A stretch of DNA of 64,000 nucleotides from Hirudinaria manillensis (lineage: Eukaryota > Annelida > Clitellata > Hirudinida > Hirudinidae): NCBI GenBank assembly GCA_034509925.1, contig CM067526.1, forward strand, positions 4,518,501 through 4,582,500. Reading direction: 5' to 3'. Position numbers and translations under genes: made by a program. This document shows positions 1 through 33,345 of this stretch, piece by piece. Positions within the stretch are counted from its first letter, which is position 1. Every line of letters starts with the position of its first letter. The notes under the pieces are model-generated. The model was not told the origin of the DNA, did no database searches, and saw only the letters and a list, made by a program, of their open reading frames with translations.

Positions 1-68
1 AATACTCTGCGTCGCAAAGCAAGGAAGAACCTTGAGTCTGGCGCCTTAGACCGCTCGGCCATCCTGAC
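1..68 (-). tRNA. tRNA-Leu-CAA: tRNA-Leu(CAA), partial at window edge
   Basis: The 5' exon (38 nt) and most of the intron of a tRNA-Leu(CAA) copy. The 3' exon lies off the left end of the window. The A box and anticodon match the complete copies. Confidence 0.9.
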
Positions 69-192
69 ACGACGCCGAACAGGAACTCCAAACTCCCTAC
101 AGCCTCGCTCTACTCCTAACGAACGCCGTTTTTGGTCGTATCCAACAAAATCGCCTCCAAAGACTCCAGCGATTTCGATCCAACGGTTTCGC

Positions 193-196
193 AAAA
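193..196 (-). terminator. Pol III T4 terminator of the reference tRNA copy
   Basis: Minus-strand TTTT begins 7 nt beyond the discriminator base (A, then CAAGGG, then TTTT). The same run follows nearly every unit. Four T residues are a minimal but sufficient Pol III stop in many animals. Confidence 0.75.
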
Positions 197-202
197 CCCT
201 TG

Positions 203-314
203 TGTCAGAAGTGGGATTTGAACCCACGCCCACATCAGTGGACCAGAATACTCTGCGTCGCAAAGCAAGGAAGAACCTTGAGTCTGGCGCCTTAGACCGC
301 TCGGCCATCCTGAC
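203..314 (-). tRNA. tRNA-Leu-CAA: tRNA-Leu(CAA) with 28-nt intron, first complete copy (reference)
   Basis: Decodes UUG leucine codons. Read on the minus strand, the 5' exon is 314-277, the intron 276-249 and the 3' exon 248-203, giving an 84-nt mature tRNA before CCA addition. The acceptor arm GTCAGGA pairs with TTCTGAC (one G-U) with discriminator A. The D arm is GCC/GGC, the anticodon stem CCAGA/TCTGG with loop CTCAAG|T, the variable arm is long (type II, stem CCAC/GTGG), and the T arm is GTGGG/CCCAC around TTCAAAT. The intron sits after position 37, the usual nuclear site, and its CCTTG can pair with CAAGG at the anticodon. Internal Pol III promoter: A box at 307-296 (TGGCCGAGCGGT) and B box at 224-214 (GGTTCAAATCC). 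Everything needed for a functional gene is present. Expression cannot be judged from sequence. Confidence 0.95.
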
Positions 315-2170
315 ACGACGCCGAACAGGAACTCCAAACTCCCTACAGCCTCGCTCTACTCCTAACGAACGCCGTTTTTGGTCGTATCCAACAAAATCGC
401 CTCCAAAGACTCCAGCGATTTCGATCCAACGGTTTCGCAAAACCCTTGTGTCAGAAGTGGGATTTGAACCCACGCCCACATCAGTGGACCAGAATACTCT
501 GCGTCGCAAAGCAAGGAAGAACCTTGAGTCTGGCGCCTTAGACCGCTCGGCCATCCTGACACGACGCCGAACAGGAACTCCAAACTCCCTACAGCCTCGC
601 TCTACTCCTAACGAACGCCGTTTTTGGTCGTATCCAACAAAATCGCCTCCAAAGACTCCAGCGATTTCGATCCAACGGTTTCGCAAAACCCTTGTGTCAG
701 AAGTGGGATTTGAACCCACGCCCACATCAGTGGACCAGAATACTCTGCGTCGCAAAGCAAGGAAGAACCTTGAGTCTGGCGCCTTAGACCGCTCGGCCAT
801 CCTGACACGACGCCGAACAGGAACTCCAAACTCCCTACAGCCTCGCTCTACTCCTAACGAACGCCGTTTTTGGTCGTATCCAACAAAATCGCCTCCAAAG
901 ACTCCAGCGATTTCGATCCAACGGTTTCGCAAAACCCTTGTGTCAGAAGTGGGATTTGAACCCACGCCCACATCAGTGGACCAGAATACTCTGCGTCGCA
1001 AAGCAAGGAAGAACCTTGAGTCTGGCGCCTTAGACCGCTCGGCCATCCTGACACGACGCCGAACAGGAACTCCAAACTCCCTACAGCCTCGCTCTACTCC
1101 TAACGAACGCCGTTTTTGGTCGTATCCAACAAAATCGCCACCAAAGACTCCAGCGATTTCGATCCAACGGTTTCGCAAAACCCTTGTGTCAGAAGTGGGA
1201 TTTGAACCCACGCCCACATCAGTGGACCAGAATACTCTGCGTCGCAAAGCAAGGAAGAACCTTGAGTCTGGCGCCTTAGACCGCTCGGCCATCCTGACAC
1301 GACGCCGAACAGGAACTCCAAACTCCCTACAGCCTCGCTCTACTCCTAACGAACGCCGTTTTTGGTCGTATCCAACAAAATCGCCTCCAAAGACTCCAGC
1401 GATTTCGATCCAACGGTTTCGCAAAACCCTTGTGTCAGAAGTGGGATTTGAACCCACGCCCACATCAGTGGACCAGAATACTCTGCGTCGCAAAGCAAGG
1501 AAGAACCTTGAGTCTGGCGCCTTAGACCGCTCGGCCATCCTGACACGACGCCGAACAGGAACTCCAAACTCCCTACAGCCTCGCTCTACTCCTAACGAAC
1601 GCCGTTTTTGGTCGTATCCAACAAAATCGCCTACAAAGACTCCAGCGATTTCGATCCAACGGTTTCGCAAAACCCTTGTGTCAGAAGTGGGATTTGAACC
1701 CACGCCCACATCAGTGGACCAGAATACTCTGCGTCGCAAAGCAAGGAAGAACCTTGAGTCTGGCGCCTTAGACCGCTCGGCCATCCTGACACGACGCCGA
1801 ACAGGAACTCCAAACTCCCTACAGCCTCGCTCTACTCCTAACGAACGCCGTTTTTGGTCGTATCCAACAAAATCGCCTCCAAAGACTCCAGCGATTTCGA
1901 TCCAACGGTTTCGCAAAACCCTTGTGTCAGAAGTGGGATTTGAACCCACGCCCACATCAGTGGACCAGAATACTCTGCGTCGCAAAGCAAGGAAGAACCT
2001 TGAGTCTGGCGCCTTAGACCGCTCGGCCATCCTGACACGACGCCGAACAGGAACTCCAAACTCCCTACAGCCTCGCTCTACTCCTAACGAACGCCGTTTT
2101 TGGTCGTATCCAACAAAATCGCCTCCAAAGACTCCAGCGATTTCGATCCAACGGTTTCGCAAAACCCTTG

Positions 2171-2282
2171 TGTCAGAAGTGGGATTTGTAACCGAGCCCA
2201 CATCAGTGGACCAGAATACTCTGCGTCGCAAAGCAAGGAAGAACCTTGAGTCTGGCGCCTTAGACCGCTCGGCCATCCTGAC
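2171..2282 (-). pseudogene. tRNA-Leu(CAA) copy with mutated T arm and B box
   Basis: Within this unit the plus strand reads GGATTTGTAACCGAGCCC where all neighbours have GGATTTGAACCCACGCCC. On the minus strand this changes the B box from GGTTCAAATCC to GGTTACAAATCC and breaks the T stem. It is probably transcribed poorly and misfolded. It is the only clearly damaged tRNA in the first 11 kb, so a local sequence error is also possible. Confidence 0.7.
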
Positions 2283-5200
2283 ACGACGCCGAACAGGAAC
2301 TCCAAACTCCCTACAGCCTCGCTCTACTCCTAACGAACGCCGTTTTTGGTCGTATCCAACAAAATCGCCTCCAAAGACTCCAGCGATTTCGATCCAACGG
2401 TTTCGCAAAACCCTTGTGTCAGAAGTGGGATTTGAACCCACGCCCACATCAGTGGACCAGAATACTCTGCGTCGCAAAGCAAGGAAGAACCTTGAGTCTG
2501 GCGCCTTAGACCGCTCGGCCATCCTGACACGACGCCGAACAGGAACTCCAAACTCCCTACAGCCTCGCTCTACTCCTAACGAACGCCGTTTTTGGTCGTA
2601 TCCAACAAAATCGCCTCCAAAGACTCCAGCGATTTCGATCCAACGGTTTCGCAAAACCCTTGTGTCAGAAGTGGGATTTGAACCCACGCCCACATCAGTG
2701 GACCAGAATACTCTGCGTCGCAAAGCAAGGAAGAACCTTGAGTCTGGCGCCTTAGACCGCTCGGCCATCCTGACACGACGCCGAACAGGAACTCCAAACT
2801 CCCTACAGCCTCGCTCTACTCCTAACGAACGCCGTTTTTGGTCGTATCCAACAAAATCGCCTACAAAGACTCCAGCGATTTCGATCCAACGGTTTCGCAA
2901 AACCCTTGTGTCAGAAGTGGGATTTGAACCCACGCCCACATCAGTGGACCAGAATACTCTGCGTCGCAAAGCAAGGAAGAACCTTGAGTCTGGCGCCTTA
3001 GACCGCTCGGCCATCCTGACACGACGCCGAACAGGAACTCCAAACTCCCTACAGCCTCGCTCTACTCCTAACGAACGCCGTTTTTGGTCGTATCCAACAA
3101 AATCGCCTACAAAGACTCCAGCGATTTCGATCCAACGGTTTCGCAAAACCCTTGTGTCAGAAGTGGGATTTGAACCCACGCCCACATCAGTGGACCAGAA
3201 TACTCTGCGTCGCAAAGCAAGGAAGAACCTTGAGTCTGGCGCCTTAGACCGCTCGGCCATCCTGACACGACGCCGAACAGGAACTCCAAACTCCCTACAG
3301 CCTCGCTCTACTCCTAACGAACGCCGTTTTTGGTCGTATCCAACAAAATCGCCTACAAAGACTCCAGCGATTTCGATCCAACGGTTTCGCAAAACCCTTG
3401 TGTCAGAAGTGGGATTTGAACCCACGCCCACATCAGTGGACCAGAATACTCTGCGTCGCAAAGCAAGGAAGAACCTTGAGTCTGGCGCCTTAGACCGCTC
3501 GGCCATCCTGACACGACGCCGAACAGGAACTCCAAACTCCCTACAGCCTCGCTCTACTCCTAACGAACGCCGTTTTTGGTCGTATCCAACAAAATCGCCT
3601 ACAAAGACTCCAGCGATTTCGATCCAACGGTTTCGCAAAACCCTTGTGTCAGAAGTGGGATTTGAACCCACGCCCACATCAGTGGACCAGAATACTCTGC
3701 GTCGCAAAGCAAGGAAGAACCTTGAGTCTGGCGCCTTAGACCGCTCGGCCATCCTGACACGACGCCGAACAGGAACTCCAAACTCCCTACAGCCTCGCTC
3801 TACTCCTAACGAACGCCGTTTTTGGTCGTATCCAACAAAATCGCCTCCAAAGACTCCAGCGATTTCGATCCAACGGTTTCGCAAAACCCTTGTGTCAGAA
3901 GTGGGATTTGAACCCACGCCCACATCAGTGGACCAGAATACTCTGCGTCGCAAAGCAAGGAAGAACCTTGAGTCTGGCGCCTTAGACCGCTCGGCCATCC
4001 TGACACGACGCCGAACAGGAACTCCAAACTCCCTACAGCCTCGCTCTACTCCTAACGAACGCCGTTTTTGGTCGTATCCAACAAAATCGCCTCCAAAGAC
4101 TCCAGCGATTTCGATCCAACGGTTTCGCAAAACCCTTGTGTCAGAAGTGGGATTTGAACCCACGCCCACATCAGTGGACCAGAATACTCTGCGTCGCAAA
4201 GCAAGGAAGAACCTTGAGTCTGGCGCCTTAGACCGCTCGGCCATCCTGACACGACGCCGAACAGGAACTCCAAACTCCCTACAGCCTCGCTCTACTCCTA
4301 ACGAACGCCGTTTTTGGTCGTATCCAACAAAATCGCCTACAAAGACTCCAGCGATTTCGATCCAACGGTTTCGCAAAACCCTTGTGTCAGAAGTGGGATT
4401 TGAACCCACGCCCACATCAGTGGACCAGAATACTCTGCGTCGCAAAGCAAGGAAGAACCTTGAGTCTGGCGCCTTAGACCGCTCGGCCATCCTGACACGA
4501 CGCCGAACAGGAACTCCAAACTCCCTACAGCCTCGCTCTACTCCTAACGAACGCCGTTTTTGGTCGTATCCAACAAAATCGCCTCCAAAGACTCCAGCGA
4601 TTTCGATCCAACGGTTTCGCAAAACCCTTGTGTCAGAAGTGGGATTTGAACCCACGCCCACATCAGTGGACCAGAATACTCTGCGTCGCAAAGCAAGGAA
4701 GAACCTTGAGTCTGGCGCCTTAGACCGCTCGGCCATCCTGACACGACGCCGAACAGGAACTCCAAACTCCCTACAGCCTCGCTCTACTCCTAACGAACGC
4801 CGTTTTTGGTCGTATCCAACAAAATCGCCTCCAAAGACTCCAGCGATTTCGATCCAACGGTTTCGCAAAACCCTTGTGTCAGAAGTGGGATTTGAACCCA
4901 CGCCCACATCAGTGGACCAGAATACTCTGCGTCGCAAAGCAAGGAAGAACCTTGAGTCTGGCGCCTTAGACCGCTCGGCCATCCTGACACGACGCCGAAC
5001 AGGAACTCCAAACTCCCTACAGCCTCGCTCTACTCCTAACGAACGCCGTTTTTGGTCGTATCCAACAAAATCGCCTACAAAGACTCCAGCGATTTCGATC
5101 CAACGGTTTCGCAAAACCCTTGTGTCAGAAGTGGGATTTGAACCCACGCCCACATCAGTGGACCAGAATACTCTGCGTCGCAAAGCAAGGAAGAACCTTG

Positions 5201-8200
5201 AGTCTGGCGCCTTAGACCGCTCGGCCATCCTGACACGACGCCGAACAGGAACTCCAAACTCCCTACAGCCTCGCTCTACTCCTAACGAACGCCGTTTTTG
5301 GTCGTATCCAACAAAATCGCCTACAAAGACTCCAGCGATTTCGATCCAACGGTTTCGCAAAAACCTTGTGTCAGAAGTGGGATTTGAACCCACGCCCACA
5401 TCAGTGGACCAGAATACTCTGCGTCGCAAAGCAAGGAAGAACCTTGAGTCTGGCGCCTTAGACCGCTCGGCCATCCTGACACGACGCCGAACAGGAACTC
5501 CAAACTCCCTACAGCCTCGCTCTACTCCTAACGAACGCCGTTTTTGGTCGTATCCAACAAAATCGCCTCCAAAGACTCCAGCGATTTCGATCCAACGGTT
5601 TCGCAAAACCCTTGTGTCAGAAGTGGGATTTGAACCCACGCCCACATCAGTGGACCAGAATACTCTGCGTCGCAAAGCAAGGAAGAACCTTGAGTCTGGC
5701 GCCTTAGACCGCTCGGCCATCCTGACACGACGCCGAACAGGAACTCCAAACTCCCTACAGCCTCGCTCTACTCCTAACGAACGCCGTTTTTGGTCGTATC
5801 CAACAAAATCGCCTCCAAAGACTCCAGCGATTTCGATCCAACGGTTTCGCAAAACCCTTGTGTCAGAAGTGGGATTTGAACCCACGCCCACATCAGTGGA
5901 CCAGAATACTCTGCGTCGCAAAGCAAGGAAGAACCTTGAGTCTGGCGCCTTAGACCGCTCGGCCATCCTGACACGACGCCGAACAGGAACTCCAAACTCC
6001 CTACAGCCTCGCTCTACTCCTAACGAACGCCGTTTTTGGTCGTATCCAACAAAATCGCCTCCAAAGACTCCAGCGATTTCGATCCAACGGTTTCGCAAAA
6101 CCCTTGTGTCAGAAGTGGGATTTGAACCCACGCCCACATCAGTGGACCAGAATACTCTGCGTCGCAAAGCAAGGAAGAACCTTGAGTCTGGCGCCTTAGA
6201 CCGCTCGGCCATCCTGACACGACGCCGAACAGGAACTCCAAACTCCCTACAGCCTCGCTCTACTCCTAACGAACGCCGTTTTTGGTCGTATCCAACAAAA
6301 TCGCCTCCAAAGACTCCAGCGATTTCGATCCAACGGTTTCGCAAAACCCTTGTGTCAGAAGTGGGATTTGAACCCACGCCCACATCAGTGGACCAGAATA
6401 CTCTGCGTCGCAAAGCAAGGAAGAACCTTGAGTCTGGCGCCTTAGACCGCTCGGCCATCCTGACACGACGCCGAACAGGAACTCCAAACTCCCTACAGCC
6501 TCGCTCTACTCCTAACGAACGCCGTTTTTGGTCGTATCCAACAAAATCGCCTCCAAAGACTCCAGCGATTTCGATCCAACGGTTTCGCAAAACCCTTGTG
6601 TCAGAAGTGGGATTTGAACCCACGCCCACATCAGTGGACCAGAATACTCTGCGTCGCAAAGCAAGGAAGAACCTTGAGTCTGGCGCCTTAGACCGCTCGG
6701 CCATCCTGACACGACGCCGAACAGGAACTCCAAACTCCCTACAGCCTCGCTCTACTCCTAACGAACGCCGTTTTTGGTCGTATCCAACAAAATCGCCTCC
6801 AAAGACTCCAGCGATTTCGATCCAACGGTTTCGCAAAACCCTTGTGTCAGAAGTGGGATTTGAACCCACGCCCACATCAGTGGACCAGAATACTCTGCGT
6901 CGCAAAGCAAGGAAGAACCTTGAGTCTGGCGCCTTAGACCGCTCGGCCATCCTGACACGACGCCGAACAGGAACTCCAAACTCCCTACAGCCTCGCTCTA
7001 CTCCTAACGAACGCCGTTTTTGGTCGTATCCAACAAAATCGCCTCCAAAGACTCCAGCGATTTCGATCCAACGGTTTCGCAAAACCCTTGTGTCAGAAGT
7101 GGGATTTGAACCCACGCCCACATCAGTGGACCAGAATACTCTGCGTCGCAAAGCAAGGAAGAACCTTGAGTCTGGCGCCTTAGACCGCTCGGCCATCCTG
7201 ACACGACGCCGAACAGGAACTCCAAACTCCCTACAGCCTCGCTCTACTCCTAACGAACGCCGTTTTTGGTCGTATCCAACAAAATCGCCTCCAAAGACTC
7301 CAGCGATTTCGATCCAACGGTTTCGCAAAACCCTTGTGTCAGAAGTGGGATTTGAACCCACGCCCACATCAGTGGACCAGAATACTCTGCGTCGCAAAGC
7401 AAGGAAGAACCTTGAGTCTGGCGCCTTAGACCGCTCGGCCATCCTGACACGACGCCGAACAGGAACTCCAAACTCCCTACAGCCTCGCTCTACTCCTAAC
7501 GAACGCCGTTTTTGGTCGTATCCAACAAAATCGCCTCCAAAGACTCCAGCGATTTCGATCCAACGGTTTCGCAAAACCCTTGTGTCAGAAGTGGGATTTG
7601 AACCCACGCCCACATCAGTGGACCAGAATACTCTGCGTCGCAAAGCAAGGAAGAACCTTGAGTCTGGCGCCTTAGACCGCTCGGCCATCCTGACACGACG
7701 CCGAACAGGAACTCCAAACTCCCTACAGCCTCGCTCTACTCCTAACGAACGCCGTTTTTGGTCGTATCCAACAAAATCGCCTCCAAAGACTCCAGCGATT
7801 TCGATCCAACGGTTTCGCAAAACCCTTGTGTCAGAAGTGGGATTTGAACCCACGCCCACATCAGTGGACCAGAATACTCTGCGTCGCAAAGCAAGGAAGA
7901 ACCTTGAGTCTGGCGCCTTAGACCGCTCGGCCATCCTGACACGACGCCGAACAGGAACTCCAAACTCCCTACAGCCTCGCTCTACTCCTAACGAACGCCG
8001 TTTTTGGTCGTATCCAACAAAATCGCCTCCAAAGACTCCAGCGATTTCGATCCAACGGTTTCGCAAAACCCTTGTGTCAGAAGTGGGATTTGAACCCACG
8101 CCCACATCAGTGGACCAGAATACTCTGCGTCGCAAAGCAAGGAAGAACCTTGAGTCTGGCGCCTTAGACCGCTCGGCCATCCTGACACGACGCCGAACAG

Positions 8201-9551
8201 GAACTCCAAACTCCCTACAGCCTCGCTCTACTCCTAACGAACGCCGTTTTTGGTCGTATCCAACAAAATCGCCTCCAAAGACTCCAGCGATTTCGATCCA
8301 ACGGTTTCGCAAAACCCTTGTGTCAGAAGTGGGATTTGAACCCACGCCCACATCAGTGGACCAGAATACTCTGCGTCGCAAAGCAAGGAAGAACCTTGAG
8401 TCTGGCGCCTTAGACCGCTCGGCCATCCTGACACGACGCCGAACAGGAACTCCAAACTCCCTACAGCCTCGCTCTACTCCTAACGAACGCCGTTTTTGGT
8501 CGTATCCAACAAAATCGCCTCCAAAGACTCCAGCGATTTCGATCCAACGGTTTCGCAAAACCCTTGTGTCAGAAGTGGGATTTGAACCCACGCCCACATC
8601 AGTGGACCAGAATACTCTGCGTCGCAAAGCAAGGAAGAACCTTGAGTCTGGCGCCTTAGACCGCTCGGCCATCCTGACACGACGCCGAACAGGAACTCCA
8701 AACTCCCTACAGCCTCGCTCTACTCCTAACGAACGCCGTTTTTGGTCGTATCCAACAAAATCGCCTCCAAAGACTCCAGCGATTTCGATCCAACGGTTTC
8801 GCAAAACCCTTGTGTCAGAAGTGGGATTTGAACCCACGCCCACATCAGTGGACCAGAATACTCTGCGTCGCAAAGCAAGGAAGAACCTTGAGTCTGGCGC
8901 CTTAGACCGCTCGGCCATCCTGACACGACGCCGAACAGGAACTCCAAACTCCCTACAGCCTCGCTCTACTCCTAACGAACGCCGTTTTTGGTCGTATCCA
9001 ACAAAATCGCCTCCAAAGACTCCAGCGATTTCGATCCAACGGTTTCGCAAAACCCTTGTGTCAGAAGTGGGATTTGAACCCACGCCCACATCAGTGGACC
9101 AGAATACTCTGCGTCGCAAAGCAAGGAAGAACCTTGAGTCTGGCGCCTTAGACCGCTCGGCCATCCTGACACGACGCCGAACAGGAACTCCAAACTCCCT
9201 ACAGCCTCGCTCTACTCCTAACGAACGCCGTTTTTGGTCGTATCCAACAAAATCGCCTACAAAGACTCCAGCGATTTCGATCCAACGGTTTCGCAAAACC
9301 CTTGTGTCAGAAGTGGGATTTGAACCCACGCCCACATCAGTGGACCAGAATACTCTGCGTCGCAAAGCAAGGAAGAACCTTGAGTCTGGCGCCTTAGACC
9401 GCTCGGCCATCCTGACACGACGCCGAACAGGAACTCCAAACTCCCTACAGCCTCGCTCTACTCCTAACGAACGCCGTTTTTGGTCGTATCCAACAAAATC
9501 GCCTCCAAAGACTCCAGCGATTTCGATCCAACGGTTTTCGCAAAACCCTTG

Positions 9552-10893: not shown

Positions 10894-11027
10894 ACGACGC
10901 CGAACAGGAACTCCAAACTCCCTACAGCCTCGCTCTACTCCTAACGAACGCCGTTTTTGGTCGTATCCAACAAAATCGCCTACAAAGACTCCAGCGATTT
11001 CGATCCAACGGTTTCGCAAAACCCTTG

Positions 11028-11188
11028 TGTCAGAAGTGGGATTTGAACCCACGCCCACATCAGTGGACCAGAATACTCTGCGTCGCAAAGCAAGGAAGAA
11101 CCTTGAGTCTGGCGCCTTAGAATACTCTGCGTCGCAAAGCAAGGAAGAACCTTGAGTCTGGCGCCTTAGACCGCTCGGCCATCCTGAC
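11028..11188 (-). pseudogene. tRNA-Leu(CAA) copy with a 49-bp internal duplication
   Basis: The segment running from the intron through the anticodon and D-arm side (first copy 11072-11120) is repeated directly at 11121-11169, so the gene is 161 nt instead of 112. The gene keeps one A box and one B box but holds two anticodon/intron regions and cannot fold as a normal cloverleaf. The following spacer also has a 1-bp deletion near 11266. This looks like replication slippage or an assembly junction inside one unit. Confidence 0.8.
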
Positions 11189-11321
11189 ACGACGCCGAAC
11201 AGGAACTCCAAACTCCCTACAGCCTCGCTCTACTCCTAACGAACGCCGTTTTTGGTCGTATCCAAAAAATCGCCTACAAAGACTCCAGCGATTTCGATCC
11301 AACGGTTTCGCAAAACCCTTG

Positions 11322-19932: not shown

Positions 19933-22012
19933 TGTCAGAAGTGGGATTTGAACCCACGCCCACATCAGTGGACCAGAATACTCTGCGTCGCAAAGCAAGG
20001 AAGAACCTTGAGTCTGGCGCCTTAGACCGCTCGGCCATCCTGACACGACGCCGAACAGGAACTCCAAACTCCCTACAGCCTCGCTCTACTCCTAACGAAC
20101 GCCGTTTTTGGTCGTATCCAACAAAATCGCATCCAAAGACTCCAGCGATTTCGATCCAACGGTTTCGCAAAACCCTTGTGTCAGAAGTGGGATTTGAACC
20201 CACGCCCACATCAGTGGACCAGAATACTCTGCGTCGCAAAGCAAGGAAGAACCTTGAGTCTGGCGCCTTAGACCGCTCGGCCATCCTGACACGACGCCGA
20301 ACAGGAACTCCAAACTCCCTACAGCCTCGCTCTACTCCTAACGAACGCCGTTTTTGGTCGTATCCAACAAAATCGCCTACAAAGACTCCAGCGATTTCGA
20401 TCCAACGGTTTCGCAAAACCCTTGTGTCAGAAGTGGGATTTGAACCCACGCCCACATCAGTGGACCAGAATACTCTGCGTCGCAAAGCAAGGAAGAACCT
20501 TGAGTCTGGCGCCTTAGACCGCTCGGCCATCCTGACACGACGCCGAACAGGAACTCCAAACTCCCTACAGCCTCGCTCTACTCCTAACGAACGCCGTTTT
20601 TGGTCGTATCCAACAAAATCGCCTCCAAAGACTCCAGCGATTTCGATCCAACGGTTTCGCAAAACCCTTGTGTCAGAAGTGGGATTTGAACCCACGCCCA
20701 CATCAGTGGACCAGAATACTCTGCCTCGCAAAGCAAGGAAGAACCTTGAGTCTGGCGCCTTAGACCGCTCGGCCATCCTGACACGACGCCGAACAGGAAC
20801 TCCAAACTCCCTACAGCCTCGCTCTACTCCTAACGAACGCCGTTTTTGGTCGTATCCAACAAAATCGCCTCCAAAGACTCCAGCGATTTCGATCCAACGG
20901 TTTCGCAAAACCCTTGTGTCAGAAGTGGGATTTGAACCCACGCCCACATCAGTGGACCAGAATACTCTGCGTCGCAAAGCAAGGAAGAACCTTGAGTCTG
21001 GCGCCTTAGACCGCTCGGCCATCCTGACACGACGCCGAACAGGAACTCCAAACTCCCTACAGCCTCGCTCTACTCCTAACGAACGCCGTTTTTGGTCGTA
21101 TCCAACAAAATCGCCTCCAAAGACTCCAGCGATTTCGATCCAACGGTTTCGCAAAACCCTTGTGTCAGAAGTGGGATTTGAACCCACGCCCACATCAGTG
21201 GACCAGAATACTCTGCGTCGCAAAGCAAGGAAGAACCTTGAGTCTGGCGCCTTAGACCGCTCGGCCATCCTGACACGACGCCGAACAGGAACTCCAAACT
21301 CCCTACAGCCTCGCTCTACTCCTAACGAACGCCGTTTTTGGTCGTATCCAACAAAATCGCCTCCAAAGACTCCAGCGATTTCGATCCAACGGTTTCGCAA
21401 AACCCTTGTGTCAGAAGTGGGATTTGAACCCACGCCCACATCAGTGGACCAGAATACTCTGCCTCGCAAAGCAAGGAAGAACCTTGAGTCTGGCGCCTTA
21501 GACCGCTCGGCCATCCTGACACGACGCCGAACAGGAACTCCAAACTCCCTACAGCCTCGCTCTACTCCTAACGAACGCCGTTTTTGGTCGTATCCAACAA
21601 AATCGCCTCCAAAGACTCCAGCGATTTCGATCCAACGGTTTCGCAAAACCCTTGTGTCAGAAGTGGGATTTGAACCCACGCCCACATCAGTGGACCAGAA
21701 TACTCTGCGTCGCAAAGCAAGGAAGAACCTTGAGTCTGGCGCCTTAGACCGCTCGGCCATCCTGACACGACGCCGAACAGGAACTCCAAACTCCCTACAG
21801 CCTCGCTCTACTCCTAACGAACGCCGTTTTTGGTCGTATCCATCAAAATCGCCTACAAAGACTCCAGCGATTTCGATCCAACGGTTTCGCAAAACCCTTG
21901 TGTCAGAAGTGGGATTTGAACCCACGCCCACATCAGTGGACCAGAATACTCTGCGTCGCAAAGCAAGGAAGAACCTTGAGTCTGGCGCCTTAGACCGCTC
22001 GGCCATCCTGAC
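19933..22012 (-). tRNA. tRNA-Leu-CAA: Array segment D: 9 tRNA-Leu(CAA) copies
   Basis: Copies occupy 19933+246n to 20044+246n for n = 0 to 8, after a 1-bp T insertion in the spacer near 19861. The variant intron allele is present at 20725 and 21463. Sequence differences here repeat those of segment C at a distance of 16 units (see findings). Confidence 0.93.
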
Positions 22013-22146
22013 ACGACGCCGAACAGGAACTCCAAACTCCCTACAGCCTCGCTCTACTCCTAACGAACGCCGTTTTTGGTCGTATCCAACAAAATCGCCT
22101 CCAAAGACTCCAGCGATTTCGATCCAACGGTTTCGCAAAACCCTTG

Positions 22147-25100
22147 TGTCAGAAGTGGGATTTGAACCCACGCCCACATCAGTGGACCAGAATACTCTGC
22201 CTCGCAAAGCAAGGAAGAACCTTGAGTCTGGCGCTTAGACCGCTCGGCCATCCTGACACGACGCCGAACAGAACTCCAAACTCCCTACAGCATCGCTCTA
22301 CTCCTAACGAACGCCGTTTTTGGTCGTATCCAACAAATCGCCTCCAAAGACTCCAGCGATTTTCGATCAACGGTTTCGCAAAACCCTTGTGTCAGAAGTG
22401 GGATTTGAACCCACGCCCACATCGTGGACCAGAATACTCTGCGTCGCAAAGCAAGGAAGAACCTTGAGTCTTGCGCCTTAGACAGCACGGCCATCAGTAC
22501 ACGACGCCGAACAGGAACTCCAAACTCCCTACAGCCTCGCTCTACTCCTAACGAACGCCGTTTTTGGTCGTATCCAACAAAATCGCCTCCAAAGACTCCA
22601 GCGATTTCGATCCAACGTTATCACAAAACCCTTGTGTCAGAAAGTGGGATTTGAACCCACGCCCACATCAGTGGACCAGAATACTCTGCCTCGCAAAGCA
22701 AGGAAGAACCTTGAGTCTGGCGCCTTAGACCGCTCGGCCATCCTGACACGACGCCGAACAGGAACTCCAAACTCCCTACAGCCTCGCTCTACTCCTAACG
22801 AACGCCGTTTTTGGTCGTATCCAACAAAATCGCCTCCAAAGACTCCAGCGATTTCGATCCAACTGTTTCGCAATTCCCTTGTGTCAGAAGTGGGATTTGA
22901 ACCCACGCCCACATCAGTGGACCAGAATACTCTGCGTCGCAAAGCAAGGAAGAACCTTGAGTCTGGCGCCTTAGACCGCTCGGCCATCCTGACACGACGC
23001 CGAACAGGAAACTCCAAACTCCCTACAGCCTCGCTCTACTCCTAACGAACGCCGTTTTGGTCGTATCCATCAAAATCGCCTACAAAGACTCCAGCGATTT
23101 CGATCCAACGGTTTCGCAAAACCCTTTGTGTCAGAAGTGGGATTTGAACCCACGCCCTCACCAGTCGACCAGAAGACTCTGCTTAGAAAAGCAACGAAGA
23201 ACCTTGAGTCCTGGCGCCTTAGACCGCTCGGCCATCCTGACACGACGCCGAACAGGAACTCCAAACTCCCTACAGCCTCGCTCTACTCCTAACGAACGCC
23301 GTTTTTGGTCGTATCCAACAAAATCGCCTCCAAAGACTCCAGCGATTTCGATCCAACGGTTTCGCAAAACCCTTGTGTCAGAAGTGGGATTTGAACCCAC
23401 GCCCACATCATTGGACCAGAATACACACCCTCGCAAAGCAAGGAAGAAACCTTGAGTCTGGCGCCTTAGACCGCTCGGCCATCCTGACACGACGCCGAAC
23501 AGGAACTCCAAACTCCCTACAGCCTCGCTCTACTCCTAACGAACGCCGTTTTTGGTCGTATCCAACAAAATCGCCTCCAAAGACTCCAGCGATTTCGATC
23601 CAACGGTTTCGCAAAAACCCTTGTGTCAGAAGTGGGATTTGAACCCACGCCCACATCATGTGGACCAGAATACTCTGCGTCGCAAAGCAAGGAAGAACCT
23701 TGAGTCTGGCGCCTTAGACCGCTCGGCCATCCTGACACGACGCCGAACAGGACCTCCAAACTCCCTACAGCCTCGCTCTACTCCTAACGAACGCCGTTTT
23801 TGGTCGTATCCAAACAAATCGCCTCCAAAGACTCCAGCGATTTCGATCCAAACGGTTTTCGCAAAACCCTTGTGTCAGAAGTGGGATTTGAACCCACGCC
23901 CACATCAGTGGGACCAGAATACTCTGCGTCGCAAAGCAAGGAAGAACCTTGAGTCTGGCGCCTTAGACCGCTCGGCCATCCTGACACGACGCCGAACAGG
24001 AACTCCAAACTCCCTACAGCCTCGCTCTACTCCTAACGAACGCCGTTTTTGGTCGTATCCAACAAAATCGCCTCCAAAGACTCCAGCGATTTCGATCCAA
24101 CGGTTTCGCAAAACCCTTGTGTCAGAAGTGGGATTTGAACCCACGCCCACATCAGTGGACCAGAATACTCTGCCTCGCAAAGCAAGGAAGAACCTTGAGT
24201 CTGGCGCCTTAGACCGCTCGGCCATCCTGACACGACGCCGAACAGGAACTCCAAACTCCCTACAGCCTCGCTCTACTCCTAACGAACGCCGTTTTTGGTC
24301 GTATCCAACAAAATCGCCTCCCAAAGACTCCAGCGATTTCGATCCAACGGTTTTCGCAAAACCCTTGTGTCAGAAGTGGGATTTGAACCCACGCCACATC
24401 AGTGGACCAGAATACTCTGCGTCGCAAAGCAAGGAAGAACCTTGAGTCTGGCGCCTTAGAACCGCTCGGCCATCCTGACACGACGCCGAACAGGAAACTC
24501 CAAACTCCCTACAGCCTCGCTCTACTCCTAACGAACGCCGTTTTTGGTCGTATCCAACAAAATCGCCTACAAAGACTCCAGCGATTTCGATCCAACGGTT
24601 TCGCAAAACCCTTGTGTCAGGAAGTGGGATTTGAAACCCACGCCCACATCAGTGACCAGAATACTCTGCGTCGCAAAGCAAGGAAGAACCTTGAGTTCTG
24701 GCGCCTTAGACCGCTCGGCCATCCTGACACGACGCCGAACAGGAACTCCAAACTCCCTACAGCCTCGCTCTACTCCTAACGAACGCCGTTTTTGGTCGTA
24801 TCCATCAAAAATCGCCTACAAAGACTCCAGCGATTTCGATCCAACGGTTTCGCAAAACCCTTGTGTCAGAAGTGGGATTTGAACCCACGCCCACATCAGT
24901 GGACCAGAATACTCTGCGTCGCAAAGCAAGGAAGAACCTTGAGTCTGGCGCCTTAGACCGCTCGGACATCCTGACACGACGCCGAACAGGAACTCCAAAC
25001 TCCCTACAGCCTCGCTCTACTCCTAACGAACGCCGTTTTTGGTCGTATCCAACAAAATCGCCTCCAAAGACTCCAGCGATTTCGATCCAACGGTTTCGCA

Positions 25101-28100
25101 AAACCCTTGTGTCAGAAGTGGGATTTGAACCCACGCCCACATCGTGGACCAGAATACTCTGCCTCGCAAAGCAAGGAAGAACCTTGAGTCTGGCGCCTTA
25201 GACCGCTCGGCCATCCTGACACGAACGCCGAACAGGAACTCCCAAACTCCCTACAGCCTCGCTCTACTCCTAACGAAACGCCGTTTTTGGTCGTATCCAA
25301 CAAAATCGCCTACAAAGACTCCAGCGATTTCGATCCAACGGTTTTCGCAAAACCCTTGTGTCAGAAGTGGGATTTGAACCCACGCCCACATCAGTGGACC
25401 AGAATACTCTGCGTCGCAAAGCAAGGAAGAACCTTGAGTCTGGCGCCTTAGACCGCTCGGCCATCCTGACACGACGCCGAACAGGAACTCCAAACTCCCT
25501 ACAGCCTCGCTCTACTCCTAACGAACGCCGTTTTTGGTCGTATCCAACAAAATCGCCTCCAAAGACTCCAGCGATTTCGATCCAACGGTTTCGCAAAACC
25601 CTTGTGTCAGAAGTGGGATTTGAACCCACGCCCACATCAGTTGACCAGAATACTCTGCGTCGCAAAGCAAGGAACGAACCTTGAGTCTGGCGCCTTAGAC
25701 CGCTCGGCCATCCTGACACGGACGCCGAACAGGAAACTCCAAACTCCCTACAGCCTCGCTCTACTCCTAACGAACGCCGTTTTTGGTCGTATCCAACAAA
25801 ATCGCCTCCAAAGACTCCAGCGATTTCGATCCAACGGTTTCGCAAAACCCTTGTGTCAGAAGTGGGATTTGAACCCACGCCCACATCAGTGGACCAGAAT
25901 ACTCTGCGTCGCAAAGCAAGGAAGAACCTTGAGTCCTGGCGCCTTAGACCGCTCGGCCATCCTGACACGACGCCGAACAGGAACTCCAACTCCCTACAGC
26001 CTCGCTCTACTCCTAACGAACGCCGTTTTTGGTCGTATCCATCAAAATCGCCTACAAAGACTCCAGCGATTTCGATCCAACGGTTTCGCAAAACCCTTGT
26101 GTCAGAAGTGGGATTTCGAACCACGCCCACATCAGTGGACCAGAATACTCTGCGTCGCAAAGCAAGGAAGAACCTTGAGTCTGGCGCCTTAGACCGCTCG
26201 GCCATCCTGACACGACGCCGAACAGGAACTCCAAACTCCCTACAGCCTCGCTCTACTCCTAACGAACGCCGTTTTTGGTCGTATCCAACAAAATCGCCTC
26301 CAAAGACTCCAGCGATTTCGATCCAACGGTTTCGCAAAACCCTTGTGTCAGAAGTGGGATTTGAACCCACGCCCACATCACCGGAACATATCACTACCGT
26401 TCTCAAAGCAAGGAAGAACCTTGAGTCTGGCGCCTTAGACCGCTCGGCCATCCTGACACGACGCCGACGCGAACAGGAAACTCAAACTCCCTACAGCCTC
26501 GCTCTACTCCTAACGAACGCCGTTTTTTGGTCGTAATCCAACAAAATCGCCTCCAAAGACTCCAGCGATTTCGATCCAACGGTTTCGCAAAAAACCCTTG
26601 TGTCAGAAGTGGGATTTGAAACCCACGCCCACATCAGTGGACCCAGAATACTCTGCGTCGCAAAGCAAGGAAGAACCTTGAGTCTGGCGCCTTAGACCGC
26701 TAGGCCATCCTGACACGACGCCGAACAGGAACTCCAAACTCCCTACAGCCTCGCTCTACTCCTAACGAACGCCGTTTTTGGTCGTATCCAACAAAATCGC
26801 CTCCAAAGACTCCAGCGATTTCGATCCAACGGTTTCGCAAAACCCTTGTGTCAGAAGTGGGATTTGAACCCACGCCCACATCAGTGGACCAGAATACTCT
26901 GCGTCGCAAAGCAAGGAAGAAACATGAGTCTGGCGCCTTAGACCGCTCGGCCATCCTGACACGACGCCGAACAGGAACTCCAAACTCCCTACAGCCTCGC
27001 TCTACTCCTAACGAACGCCGTTTTTGGTCGTATCCAACAAAATCGCCTCCAAAGACTCCAGCGATTTCGATCCAACGGTTTCACAAAACCCTTGTGTCAG
27101 AAGTGGGATTTGAACCCACGCCCACATCAGTGGACCAGAATACTCTGCCTCGCAAAGCAAGGAAGAACCTTGAGTCTGGCGCCTTAGACCGCTCGGCCAT
27201 CCTGACACGACGCCCGAACAGGAACTCCAAACTCCCTACAGCCTCGCTCTACTCCTAACGAACGCCGTTATTTGGTCGTATCCAACAAAATCGCCTCCAA
27301 AGACTCCAGCGATTTCGATCCAACGGTTTCGCAAAACCCTTGTGTCAGAAGTGGGATTTGAACCCACGCCCACATCAGTGGACCAGAATACTCTGCGTCG
27401 CAAAGCAAGGAAGAACATAGAGACTGGCGCCTTATACCGCTCGGCCATCCTGACACGACGCCGAACAGGAACTCCAAACTCCCTACAGCCTCGCTCTACT
27501 CCTAACGAACGCCGTTTTTGGTCGTATCCACCAAAATCGCCTACAAATACTCCAGCGATTTCGTTCCTACGTTTTCGCAAAACCCTTGTGTCAGAAGTGG
27601 GATTTGAACCCACGCCCACATCAGTGGACCAGAATACTCTGCCACAAAGCAAGGAAGAACCTTGAGTCTGGCGCCTTAGACCGCTCGGCCATCCTGACAC
27701 GACGCCGAACAGGAACTCCAAACTCCCTACAGCCTCGCTCTACTCCTAACGAACGCCGTTTTTGGTCGTATCCAACAAAATCGCCTCCAAAGACTCCAGC
27801 GATTTCGATCCAACGGTTTCGCAAAACCCTTGTGTCAGAAGTGGGATTTGAACCCACGCCCACATCAGTGGACCAGAATACTCTGCCTCGCAAAGCAAGG
27901 AAGAACCTTGAGTCTGGCGCCTTAGACCGCTCGGCCATCCTGACACGACGCCGAACAGGAACTCCAAACTCCCTACAGCCTCGCTCTACTCCTAACGAAC
28001 GCCGTTTTTTGTTCGTATCCATCAAAATCGCCTCCAAAGACTCCAGCGATTTCGATCCAACGGTTTCGCAAAACCCTTGTGTCAGAAGTGGGATTTGAAC

Positions 28101-30409
28101 CCACGACCACATCAGTGGACCAGAATACTCTGGCGTCGCAAAGCAAGGAAGAACCTTGAGTCTGGCGCCTTAGACCGCTCGGCCAACCTGACACGACGCC
28201 CGAACAGGAACTCCAAACTCCCTACAGCCTCGCTCTACTCCTAACGAACGCCGTTTTTTGGTCGTATCCAACAAAATCGCCTCCAAAGACTCCAGCGATT
28301 TCGATCCAACGGTTTCGCAAAACCCTTGTGTCAGAAGTGGGATTTGAACCCACGCCCACATCAGTGGACCAGAATACTCTGCGTCGCAAAGCAAGGAAGA
28401 ACCTTGAGTCTGGCGCCTTAGACCGCTCGGCCATCCTGACACGACGCCGAACAGGAACTCCAAACTCCCTACAGCCTCGCTCTACTCCTAACGAACGCCG
28501 TTTTTGGTCGTATCCAACAAAATCGCCTCCAAAGACTCCAGCGATTTCGATCCAACTCGTTGGAATTACCCTTGTGTCAGAAGTGGGATTTGAACCCACG
28601 CCCACATCAGTGGACCAGAATACTCTGCGTCGCAAAGCAAGGAAGAACCTTGAGTCTGGCGCCTTAGACCGCTCGGCCATCCTGACACGACGCCGAACAG
28701 GAACTCCAGAAACCATACAGACTAGCTCTACAACTAACGAACTCACTTTGTGGGCGTATCCAACAAAATCGCCTCCAAAGACTCCAGCGATTTCGATCCA
28801 ACGGTTTCGCAAAACCCTTGTGTCAGAAGTGGGATTTGAACCCACGCCCACATCAGTGGACCAGAATACTCTGCCTCGCAAAGCAAGGAAGAACCTTGAG
28901 TCTGGCGCCTTAGACCGCTCGGCCATCCTGACACGACGCCGAACAGGAACTCCAAACTCCCTACAGCCTCGCTCTACTCCTAACGAACGCCGTTTTTGGT
29001 CGTATCCAACAAAATCGCCTCCAAAGACTCCAGCGATTTCGATCCAACGGTTTCGCAAAACCCTTGTGTCAGAAGTGGGATTTGAACCCACGCCCACATC
29101 AGTGGACCAGAATACTCTGCGTCGCAAAGCAAGGAAGAACCTTGAGTCTGGCGCCTTAGACCGCTCGGCCATCCTGACACGACGCCGAACAGGAACTCCA
29201 AACTCCCTACAGCCTCGCTCTACTCCTAACGAACGCCGTTTTTGGTCGTATCCAACAAAATCGCCTCCAAAGACTCCAGCGATTTCGATCCAACGGTTTC
29301 GGGGGGGGCAAAACCCTTGTGTCAGAAGTGGGATTTGAACCCACGCCCACATCAGCGGACCAGAATACTCTGCGTCGCACCGCAAGCAAGAACCTCGAGT
29401 CCGGCGCCCGACTCTCTTCGGATATCCTGACACGACGCCGAACAGGAACTCCAAACTCCCTACAGCTCGCTCTACTCCTAACGAACGCCGTTTTTGGTCG
29501 TATCCAACAAAATCGCCTCCAAAGACTCCAGCGATTTCGATCCAACGGGTTCGCAAAACCCTTGTGTCTGAAGTGGGATTTGAACCACGCCCACATCAGT
29601 GGACCAGAATACTCTGCCTCGCAAAGCAAGGAAGAACCTTGAGTCTGGCGCCTTAGACCGCTCGGCCATCCTGACACGACGCCGAACAGGAACTCCAAAC
29701 TCCCTACAGCCTCGCTCTACTCCTAACGAACGCCGTTTTTGTCGTATCCAACAAAATCGCCTCCAAAGACTCCAGCGATTTCGATCCAACGGTTTCGCAA
29801 AACCCTTGTGTCAGAAGTGGGATTTGAACCCACGCCCACATCAGTGGACCAGAATACTCTGCGTCGCAAAGCAAGGAAGAACCTTGAGTCTGGCGCCTTA
29901 GACCGCTAGGCCATCCTGACACGACGCCGAACAGGAACTCCAAACTCCCTACAGCCTCGCTCTACTCCTAACGAACGCCGTTTTTGGTCGTATCCAACAA
30001 AATCGCCTCCACTGACTCCAGCGATTTCGATCCAACGGTTTCGCAAAACCCTTGTGTCAGAAGTGGGATTTGAACCCACGCCCACATCAGTGGACCAGAA
30101 TACTCTGCGTCGCAAAGCAAGGACGACCCTTGAGTCTGGCGCCTTAGACCGCTCGGCCATCCTGACACGACGCCGAACAGGAACTCCAAACTCCCTAACA
30201 GCCTCGCTCTACTCCTAACGAACGCCGTTTTTTGGTCCGTATCCAACAAAATCGCCTCCAAAGACTCCAGCGATTTCGATCCAACGGTTTCGCAAAACCC
30301 TTGTGTCAGAAGTGGGATTTGAAACCCACAACATCAGAATACTCGCGTCGCAAAGCGTCGCAAGGAAGAACCTTGAGTCTGGCGCCTTAGACCGCTCGGC
30401 CATCCTGAC
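22147..30409 (-). tRNA. Array segment E: 34 tRNA-Leu(CAA) copies with frequent indels
   Basis: Copies start (3' end) at 22147, 22390, 22635, 22882, 23129, 23376, 23624, 23873, 24120, 24368, 24615, 24864, 25110, 25359, 25605, 25854, 26100, 26346, 26601, 26849, 27095, 27343, 27589, 27833, 28080, 28329, 28575, 28821, 29067, 29320, 29565, 29809, 30055 and 30304. Spacing varies from 240 to 255 bp because of scattered single-base and short indels, many in homopolymers, with a few substitution clusters (23160-23200, 26380-26400, 28705-28755, 29380-29420). Several copies still have an intact tRNA (for example 24864, 28329, 29067). Others lose a base in the tRNA or spacer. The block may be real decay or uncorrected long-read error, so individual copies should not be scored as genes or pseudogenes without read support. 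Confidence 0.75.
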
Positions 30410-30543
30410 ACGACCACGAACAGGAACTCCAAACTCCCTACAGCCTCGCTCTACTCCTAACGAACGCCGTTTTTGGTCGTATCCAACAAAATCGCCTCCA
30501 AAGACTCCAGCGATTTCGATCCAACGGTTTCGCAAAACCCTTG

Positions 30544-33113
30544 TGTCAGAAGTGGGATTTGAACCCACGCCCACATCAGTGGACCAGAATACTCTGCGTC
30601 GCAAAGCAAGGAAGAACCTTGAGTCTGGCGCCTTAGACCGCTCGGCCATCCTGACACGACGCCGAACAGGAACTCCAAACTCCCTACAGCCTCGCTCTAC
30701 TCCTAACGAACGCCGTTTTTGGTCGTATCCAACAAAATCGCCTCCAAAGACTCCAGCGATTTCGATCCAACGGTTTCGCAAAACCCTTGTGTCAGAAGTG
30801 GGATTTGAACCCACGCCCACATCAGTGGACCAGAATACTCTGCGTCGCAAAGCAAGGAAGAACCTTGAGTCTGGCGCCTTAGACCGCTCGGCCATCCTGA
30901 CACGACGCCGAACAGGAACTCCAAACTCCCAACAGCCTCGCTCTACTCCTAACGAACGCCGTTTTTGGTCGTATCCAACAAAATCGCATCCAAAGACTCC
31001 AGCGATTTCGATCCAACGGTTTCGCAAAACCCTTGTGTCAGAAGTGGGATTTGAACCCACGCCCACATCAGTGGACCAGAATACTCTGCGTCGCAAAGCA
31101 AGGAAGAACCTTGAGTCTGGCGCCTTAGACCGCTCGGCCATCCTGACACGACGCCGAACAGGAACTCCAAACTCCCTACAGCCTCGCTCTACTCCTAACG
31201 AACGCCGTTTTTGGTCGTATCCAACAAAATCGCCTACAAAGACTCCAGCGATTTCGATCCAACGGTTTCGCAAAACCCTTGTGTCAGAAGTGGGATTTGA
31301 ACCCACGCCCACATCAGTGGACCAGAATACTCTGCGTCGCAAAGCAAGGAAGAACCTTGAGTCTGGCGCCTTAGACCGCTCGGCCATCCTGACACGACGC
31401 CGAACAGGAACTCCAAACTCCCTACAGCCTCGCTCTACTCCTAACGAACGCCGTTTTTGGTCGTATCCAACAAAATCGCCTCCAAAGACTCCAGCGATTT
31501 CGATCCAACGGTTTCGCAAAACCCTTGTGTCAGAAGTGGGATTTGAACCCACGCCCACATCAGTGGACCAGAATACTCTGCCTCGCAAAGCAAGGAAGAA
31601 CCTTGAGTCTGGCGCCTTAGACCGCTCGGCCATCCTGACACGACGCCGAACAGGAACTCCAAACTCCCTACAGCCTCGCTCTACTCCTAACGAACGCCGT
31701 TTTTGGTCGTATCCAACAAAATCGCCTCCAAAGACTCCAGCGATTTCGATCCAACGGTTTCGCAAAACCCTTGTGTCAGAAGTGGGATTTGAACCCACGC
31801 CCACATCAGTGGACCAGAATACTCTGCGTCGCAAAGCAAGGAAGAACCTTGAGTCTGGCGCCTTAGACCGCTCGGCCATCCTGACACGACGCCGAACAGG
31901 AACTCCAAACTCCCTACAGCCTCGCTCTACTCCTAACGAACGCCGTTTTTGGTCGTATCCAACAAAATCGCCTCCAAAGACTCCAGCGATTTCGATCCAA
32001 CGGTTTCGCAAAACCCTTGTGTCAGAAGTGGGATTTGAACCCACGCCCACATCAGTGGACCAGAATACTCTGCGTCGCAAAGCAAGGAAGAACCTTGAGT
32101 CTGGCGCCTTAGACCGCTCGGCCATCCTGACACGACGCCGAACAGGAACTCCAAACTCCCTACAGCCTCGCTCTACTCCTAACGAACGCCGTTTTTGGTC
32201 GTATCCAACAAAATCGCCTCCAAAGACTCCAGCGATTTCGATCCAACGGTTTCGCAAAACCCTTGTGTCAGAAGTGGGATTTGAACCCACGCCCACATCA
32301 GTGGACCAGAATACTCTGCGTCGCAAAGCAAGGAAGAACCTTGAGTCTGGCGCCTTAGACCGCTCGGCCATCCTGACACGACGCCGAACAGGAACTCCAA
32401 ACTCCCTACAGCCTCGCTCTACTCCTAACGAACGCCGTTTTTGGTCGTATCCAACAAAATCGCCTACAAAGACTCCAGCGATTTCGATCCAACGTTTCGC
32501 AAAACCCTTGTGTCAGAAGTGGGATTTGAACCCACGCCCACATCAGTGGACCAGAATACTCTGCGTCGCAAAGCAAGGAAGAACCTTGAGTCTGGCGCCT
32601 TAGACCGCTCGGCCATCCTGACACGACGCCGAACAGGAACTCCAAACTCCCTACAGCCTCGCTCTACTCCTAACGAACGCCGTTTTTGGTCGTATCCAAC
32701 AAAATCGCCTACAAAGACTCCAGCGATTTCGATCCAACGTTTCGCAAAACCCTTGTGTCAGAAGTGGGATTTGAACCCACGCCCACATCAGTGGACCAGA
32801 ATACTCTGCGTCGCAAAGCAAGGAAGAACCTTGAGTCTGGCGCCTTAGACCGCTCGGCCATCCTGACACGACGCCGAACAGGAACTCCAAACTCCCTACA
32901 GCCTCGCTCTACTCCTAACGAACGCCGTTTTTGGTCGTATCCAACAAAATCGCCTACAAAGACTCCAGCGATTTCGATCCAACGGTTTCGCAAAACCCTT
33001 GTGTCAGAAGTGGGATTTGAACCCACGCCCACATCAGTGGACCAGAATACTCTGCGTCGCAAAGCAAGGAAGAACCTTGAGTCTGGCGCCTTAGACCGCT
33101 CGGCCATCCTGAC
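30544..33113 (-). tRNA. tRNA-Leu-CAA: Array segment F: 11 tRNA-Leu(CAA) copies
   Basis: Copies start at 30544, 30790, 31036, 31282, 31528, 31774, 32020, 32266, 32511, 32756 and 33002 (each 112 nt). The tRNAs are intact; two spacers lack one G (AACGTTTCGC for AACGGTTTCGC, near 32494 and 32739). The variant intron allele is at 31582. The order of variants between 30988 and 31582 repeats that of 20131-20725. Confidence 0.93.
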
Positions 33114-33247
33114 ACGACGCCGAACAGGAACTCCAAACTCCCTACAGCCTCGCTCTACTCCTAACGAACGCCGTTTTTGGTCGTATCCAACAAAATCGCC
33201 TCCAAAGACTCCAGCGATTTCGATCCAACGGTTTCGCAAAACCCTTG

Positions 33248-33345
33248 TGTCAGAAGTGGGATTTGAACCCACGCCCACATCAGTGGACCAGAATACCAAC
33301 AGGAACTGCAAAGTAACTTCAACTTCACTTTATTCCTTGAGTATT
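33248..33345 (-). pseudogene. Terminal, internally deleted tRNA-Leu(CAA) unit at the array edge
   Basis: The 3' exon and the first bases of the intron are intact to 33296. The rest of the intron and the whole 5' exon with the A box are missing. The sequence then continues with CAACAGGAACTGCAAAG, a diverged form of the spacer sequence GAACAGGAACTCCAAAC, and similarity fades by about 33345. A deletion has joined the intron to the spacer, so this copy cannot be transcribed from its own A box. Confidence 0.8.

What the first reader, a model, noticed from the sequence alone, without database searches (positions are those of the whole stretch)
1..33345. Single-isoacceptor array of at least 134 intron-containing tRNA-Leu(CAA) genes
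A head-to-tail array of one tRNA gene per 246-bp unit, running off the window, is very unusual. Known eukaryotic tRNA arrays (for example in Entamoeba or Xenopus) usually mix several tRNAs per unit. Nearly all copies outside 22-30 kb keep both promoter boxes, the intron, a folded cloverleaf and a T4 terminator. Either an exceptional dose of tRNA-Leu(CAA) is being maintained, or a functional-looking tRNA gene has become a satellite DNA.
Basis: partly seen in the sequence, partly recalled or inferred. Interest (0 to 1): 0.88.

Follow-up and report, generated by a model that had tools for sequence, protein, structure and literature searches.

The report
Leech tRNA-Leu gene array
In what is very probably the Asian buffalo leech, the gene for one leucine transfer RNA is repeated about 255 times in a row at one chromosomal site, and several other transfer RNA genes of the same animal sit in similar long repeats, an arrangement best known from the amoeba Entamoeba.

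Summary
The 246-bp unit carries an intron-containing tRNA-Leu(CAA) on the minus strand. The array runs 29.4 kb beyond the left window edge: C1:4489066-4551796, 62.7 kb, about 255 units. Of 251 units with both tRNA ends, 228 encode the same mature tRNA and 237 pass an integrity test. Genome-wide, 246 sites match the tRNA 5' half with up to 3 mismatches, and 246 lie in the fetched locus, so no other copy that close exists. The longest exact internal repeat is 4.0 kb, so ~19-kb HiFi reads could resolve it. The array is not alone: seven further arrays carry Leu(CAG)+Thr, Gly(TCC), Asn+Asp, Val+Glu+Val, initiator Met, Phe and a Leu-like tRNA. Assembly statistics fit the leech Hirudinaria manillensis (PMC10671345, passages). 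Best reading: working tRNA genes kept alike by concerted evolution, an Entamoeba-like organisation in an annelid. In a small sample copy number does not follow codon use. Neither 'exceptional TTG dose' nor 'tRNA turned satellite' fits well. Expression was not testable.

The parts
1..33296 (-). Tandem array of 246-bp units, each with one tRNA-Leu(CAA) gene; it continues 29.4 kb to the left outside the window
203..314 (-). Example unit, pre-tRNA-Leu(CAA): 5' exon 314-277, 28-nt intron 276-249, 3' exon 248-203; A box about 307-295, B box 224-214
   Evidence: cmscan 48.4 bits; fold; exon borders follow the canonical site after position 37, and box names are recalled
193..196 (-). TTTT Pol III terminator of the example unit, 6 nt after the tRNA
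   Evidence: TTTT in 253 of 255 units
11028..11188 (-). Copy interrupted by a 49-bp internal tandem duplication
22000..31600 (-). Divergent block of 39 units near the right end of the array, with 11 of the 14 copies that fail the integrity test
33298..33337 (-). Likely decayed remnant of unit spacer just outside the regular array
   Evidence: score 30 against a maximum of 23 in 200 base shuffles
38688..46350 (+). Neighbouring Tbx1/10-type T-box gene, exon pieces; shows that the window is from an animal, by best named relatives a lophotrochozoan
   Evidence: the last piece (45895-46350) is assigned by eye

Best explanation
This is the animal's tRNA-Leu(CAA) gene set: about 255 head-to-tail copies at one locus, kept alike by unequal crossing-over and gene conversion (concerted evolution). 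It is one of at least eight such tRNA arrays in the genome of a leech. Shown: array, homogeneity, intact internal promoters, intron pairing in the predicted fold, terminators, no other copy within 3 mismatches in the 5' half, and sister arrays of other tRNAs. Inferred: TFIIIC and Pol III read at least part of the array, TSEN removes the 28-nt intron, and the product decodes TTG. Also inferred: copy number drifts with recombination and is well above need, so many copies are probably silent or used only at some stages, rather than each being needed for a TTG dose.
For: Array of 62.7 kb, 228 of 251 copies with identical mature sequence; 237 of 251 intact. Genome-wide matches to the 5' half with up to 3 mismatches: 246, equal to the 246 in the fetched locus. 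The two main unit types differ at one base and are intermixed along the array: 137 and 47 of 256 pieces, as unequal exchange would produce. Decay sits toward the right edge. Anticodon-intron pairing CAAGG/CCTTG in the predicted pre-tRNA fold. Other tRNAs in the same kind of array: Leu(CAG)+Thr(AGT) 585 bp x75; Asn+Asp 499 bp, 78 Asp copies; Val(AAC)+Glu(CTC)+Val(CAC) 683 bp, at most 74 and 73 Val copies; Gly(TCC) 293 bp; initiator Met 185 bp x80; Phe 400 bp; a Leu of AAG/TAG type 326 bp x58. Codon use does not predict copy number in a small sample.
Against: No expression data. Inside the array, exon sites are not clearly spared: distinct substitutions per 100 nt are 10.7 in exons, 3.6 in intron and 14.9 in spacer outside the divergent block, and 29.8, 64.3 and 30.6 inside it. 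So selection on single copies is not visible. TTG is the commonest Leu codon in the small sample, 72 of 272, which leaves a dosage role open. Lys(CTT) gave only 4 non-array matches, so not every tRNA seems arrayed. The 'only source' claim covers copies within 3 mismatches over 38 nt.
Confidence: 0.74

Rival explanations
1. Dosage: about 255 copies are kept by selection because the animal needs very much tRNA-Leu(CAA), for TTG-rich abundant proteins or for a bulk phase such as egg production.
For: Leu(CAA) has the largest copy number of the arrays counted; TTG is the commonest Leu codon, 72 of 272; most copies are intact.
Against: Copies per unit codon use differ about 7-fold between arrays, from 1.4 for Asp to 10.5 for Leu(CAA), with no significant rank correlation (small sample, several copy numbers assumed). 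Exons are not clearly spared from mutation. Lys(CTT) shows only 4 matches to its anticodon arm.
Confidence: 0.13
2. Satellite: a tRNA gene has become structural satellite DNA and its tRNA function is incidental.
For: Very regular, homogeneous, 62.7 kb, with higher GC than the flanks; exon variants nearly as frequent as spacer variants.
Against: No other copy within 3 mismatches in the 5' half. Seven other arrays of tRNA genes show the same layout at separate loci. The array ends 5.4 kb from the first exon piece of a T-box gene.
Confidence: 0.07
3. Assembly artefact: a short array expanded by the assembler.
For: Long homogeneous repeats are a known assembly hazard; reads were not available here.
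Against: Longest exact repeat 3,967 bp in the 62.7-kb array and 2,309 bp in the Leu/Thr array, against a mean HiFi read of 18.73 kb reported for the matching assembly (PMC10671345, passages). The two unit types form an irregular order.
Confidence: 0.04

Closest known systems
Entamoeba tRNA gene arrays (PMC2652664; abstract, passages and section 29 seen)
   Same: Many tRNAs in separate tandem arrays whose units hold one to a few tRNA genes; some units hold a single isoacceptor; low-copy dispersed genes exist for some tRNAs; no link to codon use was reported there; homogenisation by concerted evolution is proposed.
   Different: Here an animal. The blocks of many short repeats seen between genes in E. 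histolytica and E. dispar are absent: TRF at score 30 or more finds only a 1.9-copy 14-bp repeat in Leu(CAA) units, a 2-copy 8-bp repeat in some Leu/Thr units, and none inside the Gly, Asn/Asp and Val/Glu/Val units examined. Whether almost all tRNAs are arrayed is not established; 5S in units was not tested.
[quoted passage not shown]
   Same: Animal tRNA genes in long tandem arrays.
   Different: Adjacent tRNA pairs in the clawed frog are mostly heterogeneous (PMC2888827, section 6 seen); the leech units read hold one to three tRNAs in 246-683 bp; stage specificity unknown here.
Large tRNA clusters in Nematostella and teleosts (PMC2888827, section 6 seen)
   Same: Animal clusters of fifty and more tRNA genes.
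   Different: Pairs in Nematostella and zebrafish are described as mostly heterogeneous; regular single-isoacceptor units are not described in the section seen.
Arabidopsis Ser-Tyr-Tyr tRNA cluster (PMC12308677, abstract seen)
   Same: Tandem tRNA units; shows that such a cluster can be silent in most tissues and active in certain root cells.
   Different: Plant, Ser and Tyr tRNAs together, overlapping heterochromatin; other genes encode the same tRNAs (recalled).

Membership tests
Nuclear tRNA-Leu(CAA) gene | Cloverleaf with long variable arm, anticodon CAA, A and B boxes, T-run terminator, intron after position 37 | tested here: met
   cmscan, fold, integrity in 237 of 251. Against: ARAGORN with introns labels the genes Met(CAT) with a 28-nt intron; I read that as a shifted intron border, because the leech's own Leu(CAG) unit matches at 96% over 28 nt and 90% over 42 nt. 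Similarity to human Leu(CAA) is recalled.
Nuclear tRNA-Leu(CAA) gene | Transcribed, spliced and charged | not testable with these tools
   No RNA data
Entamoeba-type tRNA array system | Separate tandem arrays with units of one to a few tRNA genes | tested here: met
Entamoeba-type tRNA array system | Almost all tRNA genes arrayed | tested here: inconclusive
   Arrays for Leu, Thr, Gly(TCC), Asn, Asp, Val, Glu, initiator Met and Phe; Lys(CTT) only 4 non-array matches and elongator Met only 3 scattered motif matches; the other tRNAs were not resolved
Entamoeba-type tRNA array system | No link between copy number and codon use | tested here: inconclusive
   Spearman 0.27, p 0.42, n 11, 2,972 codons; small hand-picked sample
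Entamoeba-type tRNA array system | Short tandem repeat blocks between genes (E. histolytica and E. dispar only) | tested here: not met
   other Entamoeba species also lack them (PMC2652664, abstract)
Satellite DNA | Long homogeneous tandem repeat | tested here: met
Satellite DNA | No genic function of the unit | tested here: inconclusive
   Intact tRNA genes and no other copy within 3 mismatches; expression untested
Xenopus-type oocyte tDNA arrays | Arrays active in oocyte and early embryo while dispersed genes serve the soma | not testable with these tools
   Motif matches outside the arrays exist for initiator Met (3), the AAG/TAG-type Leu (6), Gly(TCC) (1 seen) and Phe (1 seen); none for Leu(CAA). 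They were not read as full genes, except that the Gly one also has the array B box at the same distance.

The most novel reading that the evidence does not exclude
This leech has a two-tier tRNA gene system: dispersed single genes for everyday use, and high-copy homogenised arrays switched on when very large tRNA stocks are built, such as in oogenesis or early cleavage. Copy number may be held near a set point, since arrays on three contigs count 75, 78 and 80 units and a fourth at most 74, and Leu(CAA) has lost its dispersed copies altogether. That would be an independent animal counterpart of both the Entamoeba and the Xenopus arrangements.
Probability: 0.25. Interest if true: 0.78.

Novelty: new variant of a known kind. 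Interest (0 to 1): 0.62.

Why it matters
Tandem tRNA arrays of this regular kind were first reported in Entamoeba and have no agreed function. A leech with chromosome-scale long-read data and several arrays at mapped loci would allow direct tests. Is array copy number set by demand or by recombination? Are all copies read? Can an animal rest a whole isoacceptor on one recombining locus? The array also suggests that short-read leech genomes undercount tRNA genes: the draft of another leech, H. medicinalis, reported 429 tRNA genes (PMC7303139, passages), while the Leu(CAA), Leu/Thr, Asp and initiator-Met genes counted here already give 251 + 150 + 78 + 80 = 559.

Tried and rejected
Considered and rejected: chance or low-complexity origin (regular array, intact genes); assembly expansion (longest exact repeat 4.0 kb); TTG dosage as main reason (no correlation); purifying selection visible inside the array (not seen). 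A mobile-element origin was not tested specifically; the only dispersed piece found was a 62-nt fragment, 92% identical, at C12:549775 that runs from the intron into the trailer, and skips very common words. The two long ORFs read across the array end have no Pfam match and are by-products.

Limits. Codon counts come from ten hand-picked stop-to-stop ORFs out of 264, plus three T-box exon pieces. Pfam support was found for the T-box, PDZ (406 of 831 aa tested), Fuseless, FKBP and Ras-like ORFs; the 486-aa ORF had none, and the other four were taken by eye. In that table Phe (173), Gly (191), Glu (74) and both Val numbers are assumed from genome-wide motif counts or unit structure, not from fully read arrays, and the 58-copy Leu array is assumed to be AAG. 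Pattern searches list only the first 100 places: of the Val matches 22 of 147 were seen, all on C11; of the Phe-type matches 100 of 179; of Gly(TCC) 100 of 193. The rest were counted but not located, and the Phe and Val patterns can also match other tRNAs. A codon table for highly expressed genes was planned but its search did not complete.

Literature: listings of nine searches showed no paper whose title or abstract start deals with leech or annelid nuclear tRNA arrays. Among leech genome papers I saw passages of three: PMC10087013 mentions tRNA in methods, abbreviations and references only (main text; supplements not seen); PMC10671345 has no 'tRNA' in its main text; PMC7303139 gives counts only. 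Subscription journals are largely absent from that library.

Full report
1. The observation. TRF finds one array over window 1-33296, period 246, 135.0 copies, and cmscan places 128 tRNA matches above gathering there, all on the minus strand. The unit encodes a type-II tRNA with anticodon CAA and a 28-nt intron. The predicted pre-tRNA pairs CAAGG of the anticodon region with CCTTG in the intron, and the spliced form folds as a cloverleaf with a long variable arm. ARAGORN without introns finds nothing; with introns it labels the copies Met(CAT). I take the label as a shifted intron border, since the leech's own tRNA-Leu(CAG) unit aligns at 96% over 28 nt and 90% over 42 nt. TTTT stands 6 nt after the gene.

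2. Extent. The window is C1:4518501-4582500 of a 148.4-Mb, 23-contig genome. Fetched flanks show the array spanning C1:4489066-4551796, 62,731 bp. BLAST with the consensus gives 256 pieces, 251 with both tRNA ends. Of these 251, 228 have the same mature sequence and 237 pass a test of stems, B box, anticodon and exon gaps; in the window it is 119 of 131. The longest exact repeat inside is 3,967 bp.

3. Which animal. The neighbouring gene at window 38688-46350 is a T-box gene of Tbx1/10 type. The assembly statistics (23 contigs, 148,429,096 bases, C1 of 14,755,599) fit the Hirudinaria manillensis assembly: 22 scaffolds of 148.59 Mb, longest 14.76 Mb, 13 chromosomes, mitochondrion assembled apart, mean HiFi read 18.73 kb (PMC10671345, passages). 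The totals differ by about 0.16 Mb. I treat this as a strong but indirect identification.

4. Only source. A search for the 38-nt 5' half with up to 3 mismatches gave 246 sites genome-wide, all on one strand (100 listed). The same count made on the fetched 194-kb locus is 246, so none lies elsewhere. A DNA search, which skips very common words, showed only a fragment on C12 and partial matches to the Leu(CAG) array. A more diverged gene is not excluded.

5. Not alone. Units read in fetched DNA: Leu(CAG)+Thr(AGT) 585 bp, 75.2 copies, C1:5585418-5629428, 150 tRNA genes by ARAGORN; Gly(TCC) 293 bp; Asn(GTT)+Asp(GTC) 499 bp; Val(AAC)+Glu(CTC)+Val(CAC) 683 bp. Counts: Asp 78, all listed on C8; the rest of that pattern's 225 matches, 73 and 74, are Val where listed (22 places on C11); initiator Met motif 80 of 83 matches in C6:2218592-2233207 with a 185-bp period, the other 3 on C2; Phe-type motif 179 matches, 99 of the 100 listed in a 400-bp array on C2; Gly(TCC) 193, 99 of the 100 listed in C1:3362143-3405791; a Leu of AAG/TAG type, anticodon not read, 58 of 64 in C1:5141355-5159938 with a 326-bp period, 6 dispersed. 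Lys(CTT) gave only 4 irregularly spaced matches and an earlier Lys/Met pattern nothing above control (4 against 3). B-box-like sites number 4,708 against 1,003 in the reversed-pattern control, far more than the arrays above explain, so more arrays or dispersed tRNA-like sequences are likely.

6. Variation. Two unit types differing at one base (137 and 47 of 256) are intermixed irregularly. A 39-unit block at window 22-31.6 kb is much more diverged, and a likely decayed spacer piece follows the array. Exons are not clearly spared: distinct substitutions per 100 nt in exon, intron and spacer are 10.7, 3.6 and 14.9 outside the block, and 29.8, 64.3 and 30.6 inside. This is what redundancy plus homogenisation predicts, and it gives no support for selection on each copy.

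7. Dose. In 2,972 codons from a small hand-picked set of ORFs, TTG makes up 72 of 272 Leu codons. Across 11 tRNA-codon pairs, several with assumed copy numbers, copy number and codon use do not correlate significantly (rho 0.27, p 0.42); copies per codon range from 1.4 to 10.5. In Entamoeba, too, no link between codon use and gene number was reported, and silent copies were proposed (PMC2652664, section 29).

8. Reading. The array is best seen as the leech's tRNA-Leu(CAA) gene set, maintained by concerted evolution, and one of several arrays of this kind. Clusters of fifty and more tRNA genes are known in Nematostella and teleosts (PMC2888827, section 6). Xenopus has oocyte-specific tandem tRNA arrays (PMC11500080, passages), and Arabidopsis a cluster active mainly in root cap cells (PMC12308677, abstract). 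The leech combines regular one-to-three-gene units with apparent dispersed copies for some tRNAs and none found for Leu(CAA). Whether the copies are read, and when, is open.

Noticed in passing
G000 C6:2218592-2233207, C8:2930669-2969109, C1:5585418-5629428, C11 from 4070643: Arrays on different contigs have nearly the same copy number: 80, 78, 75 and at most 73-74, while others have 58, up to about 175, up to about 193 and about 255.
   Followed up: no
G000 C1:3.36, 4.49, 5.14 and 5.59 Mb: Four tRNA arrays, three of them with leucine tRNAs, lie within 2.3 Mb of one contig.
   Followed up: no
G000 C1:3378854-3393929: The Gly(TCC) array also has an inner stretch where exact matches become sparse and spacing irregular, like the diverged block in the window.
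   Followed up: no
L001 1492-1553 (C12, about 549.8 kb): A dispersed 62-nt copy of intron end, 3' exon and trailer of the tRNA-Leu(CAA) unit, 92% identical.
   Followed up: partly
Units of five arrays (window 1-33296, L031, L032, L034, C1:5585418): All five units have GC 0.53-0.58 and CpG observed/expected 1.15-1.43. The flanks of the window array have GC 0.34, with CpG observed/expected 0.76 on the left and 1.22 on the right, so the GC contrast is clear but a methylation difference is not.
   Followed up: partly
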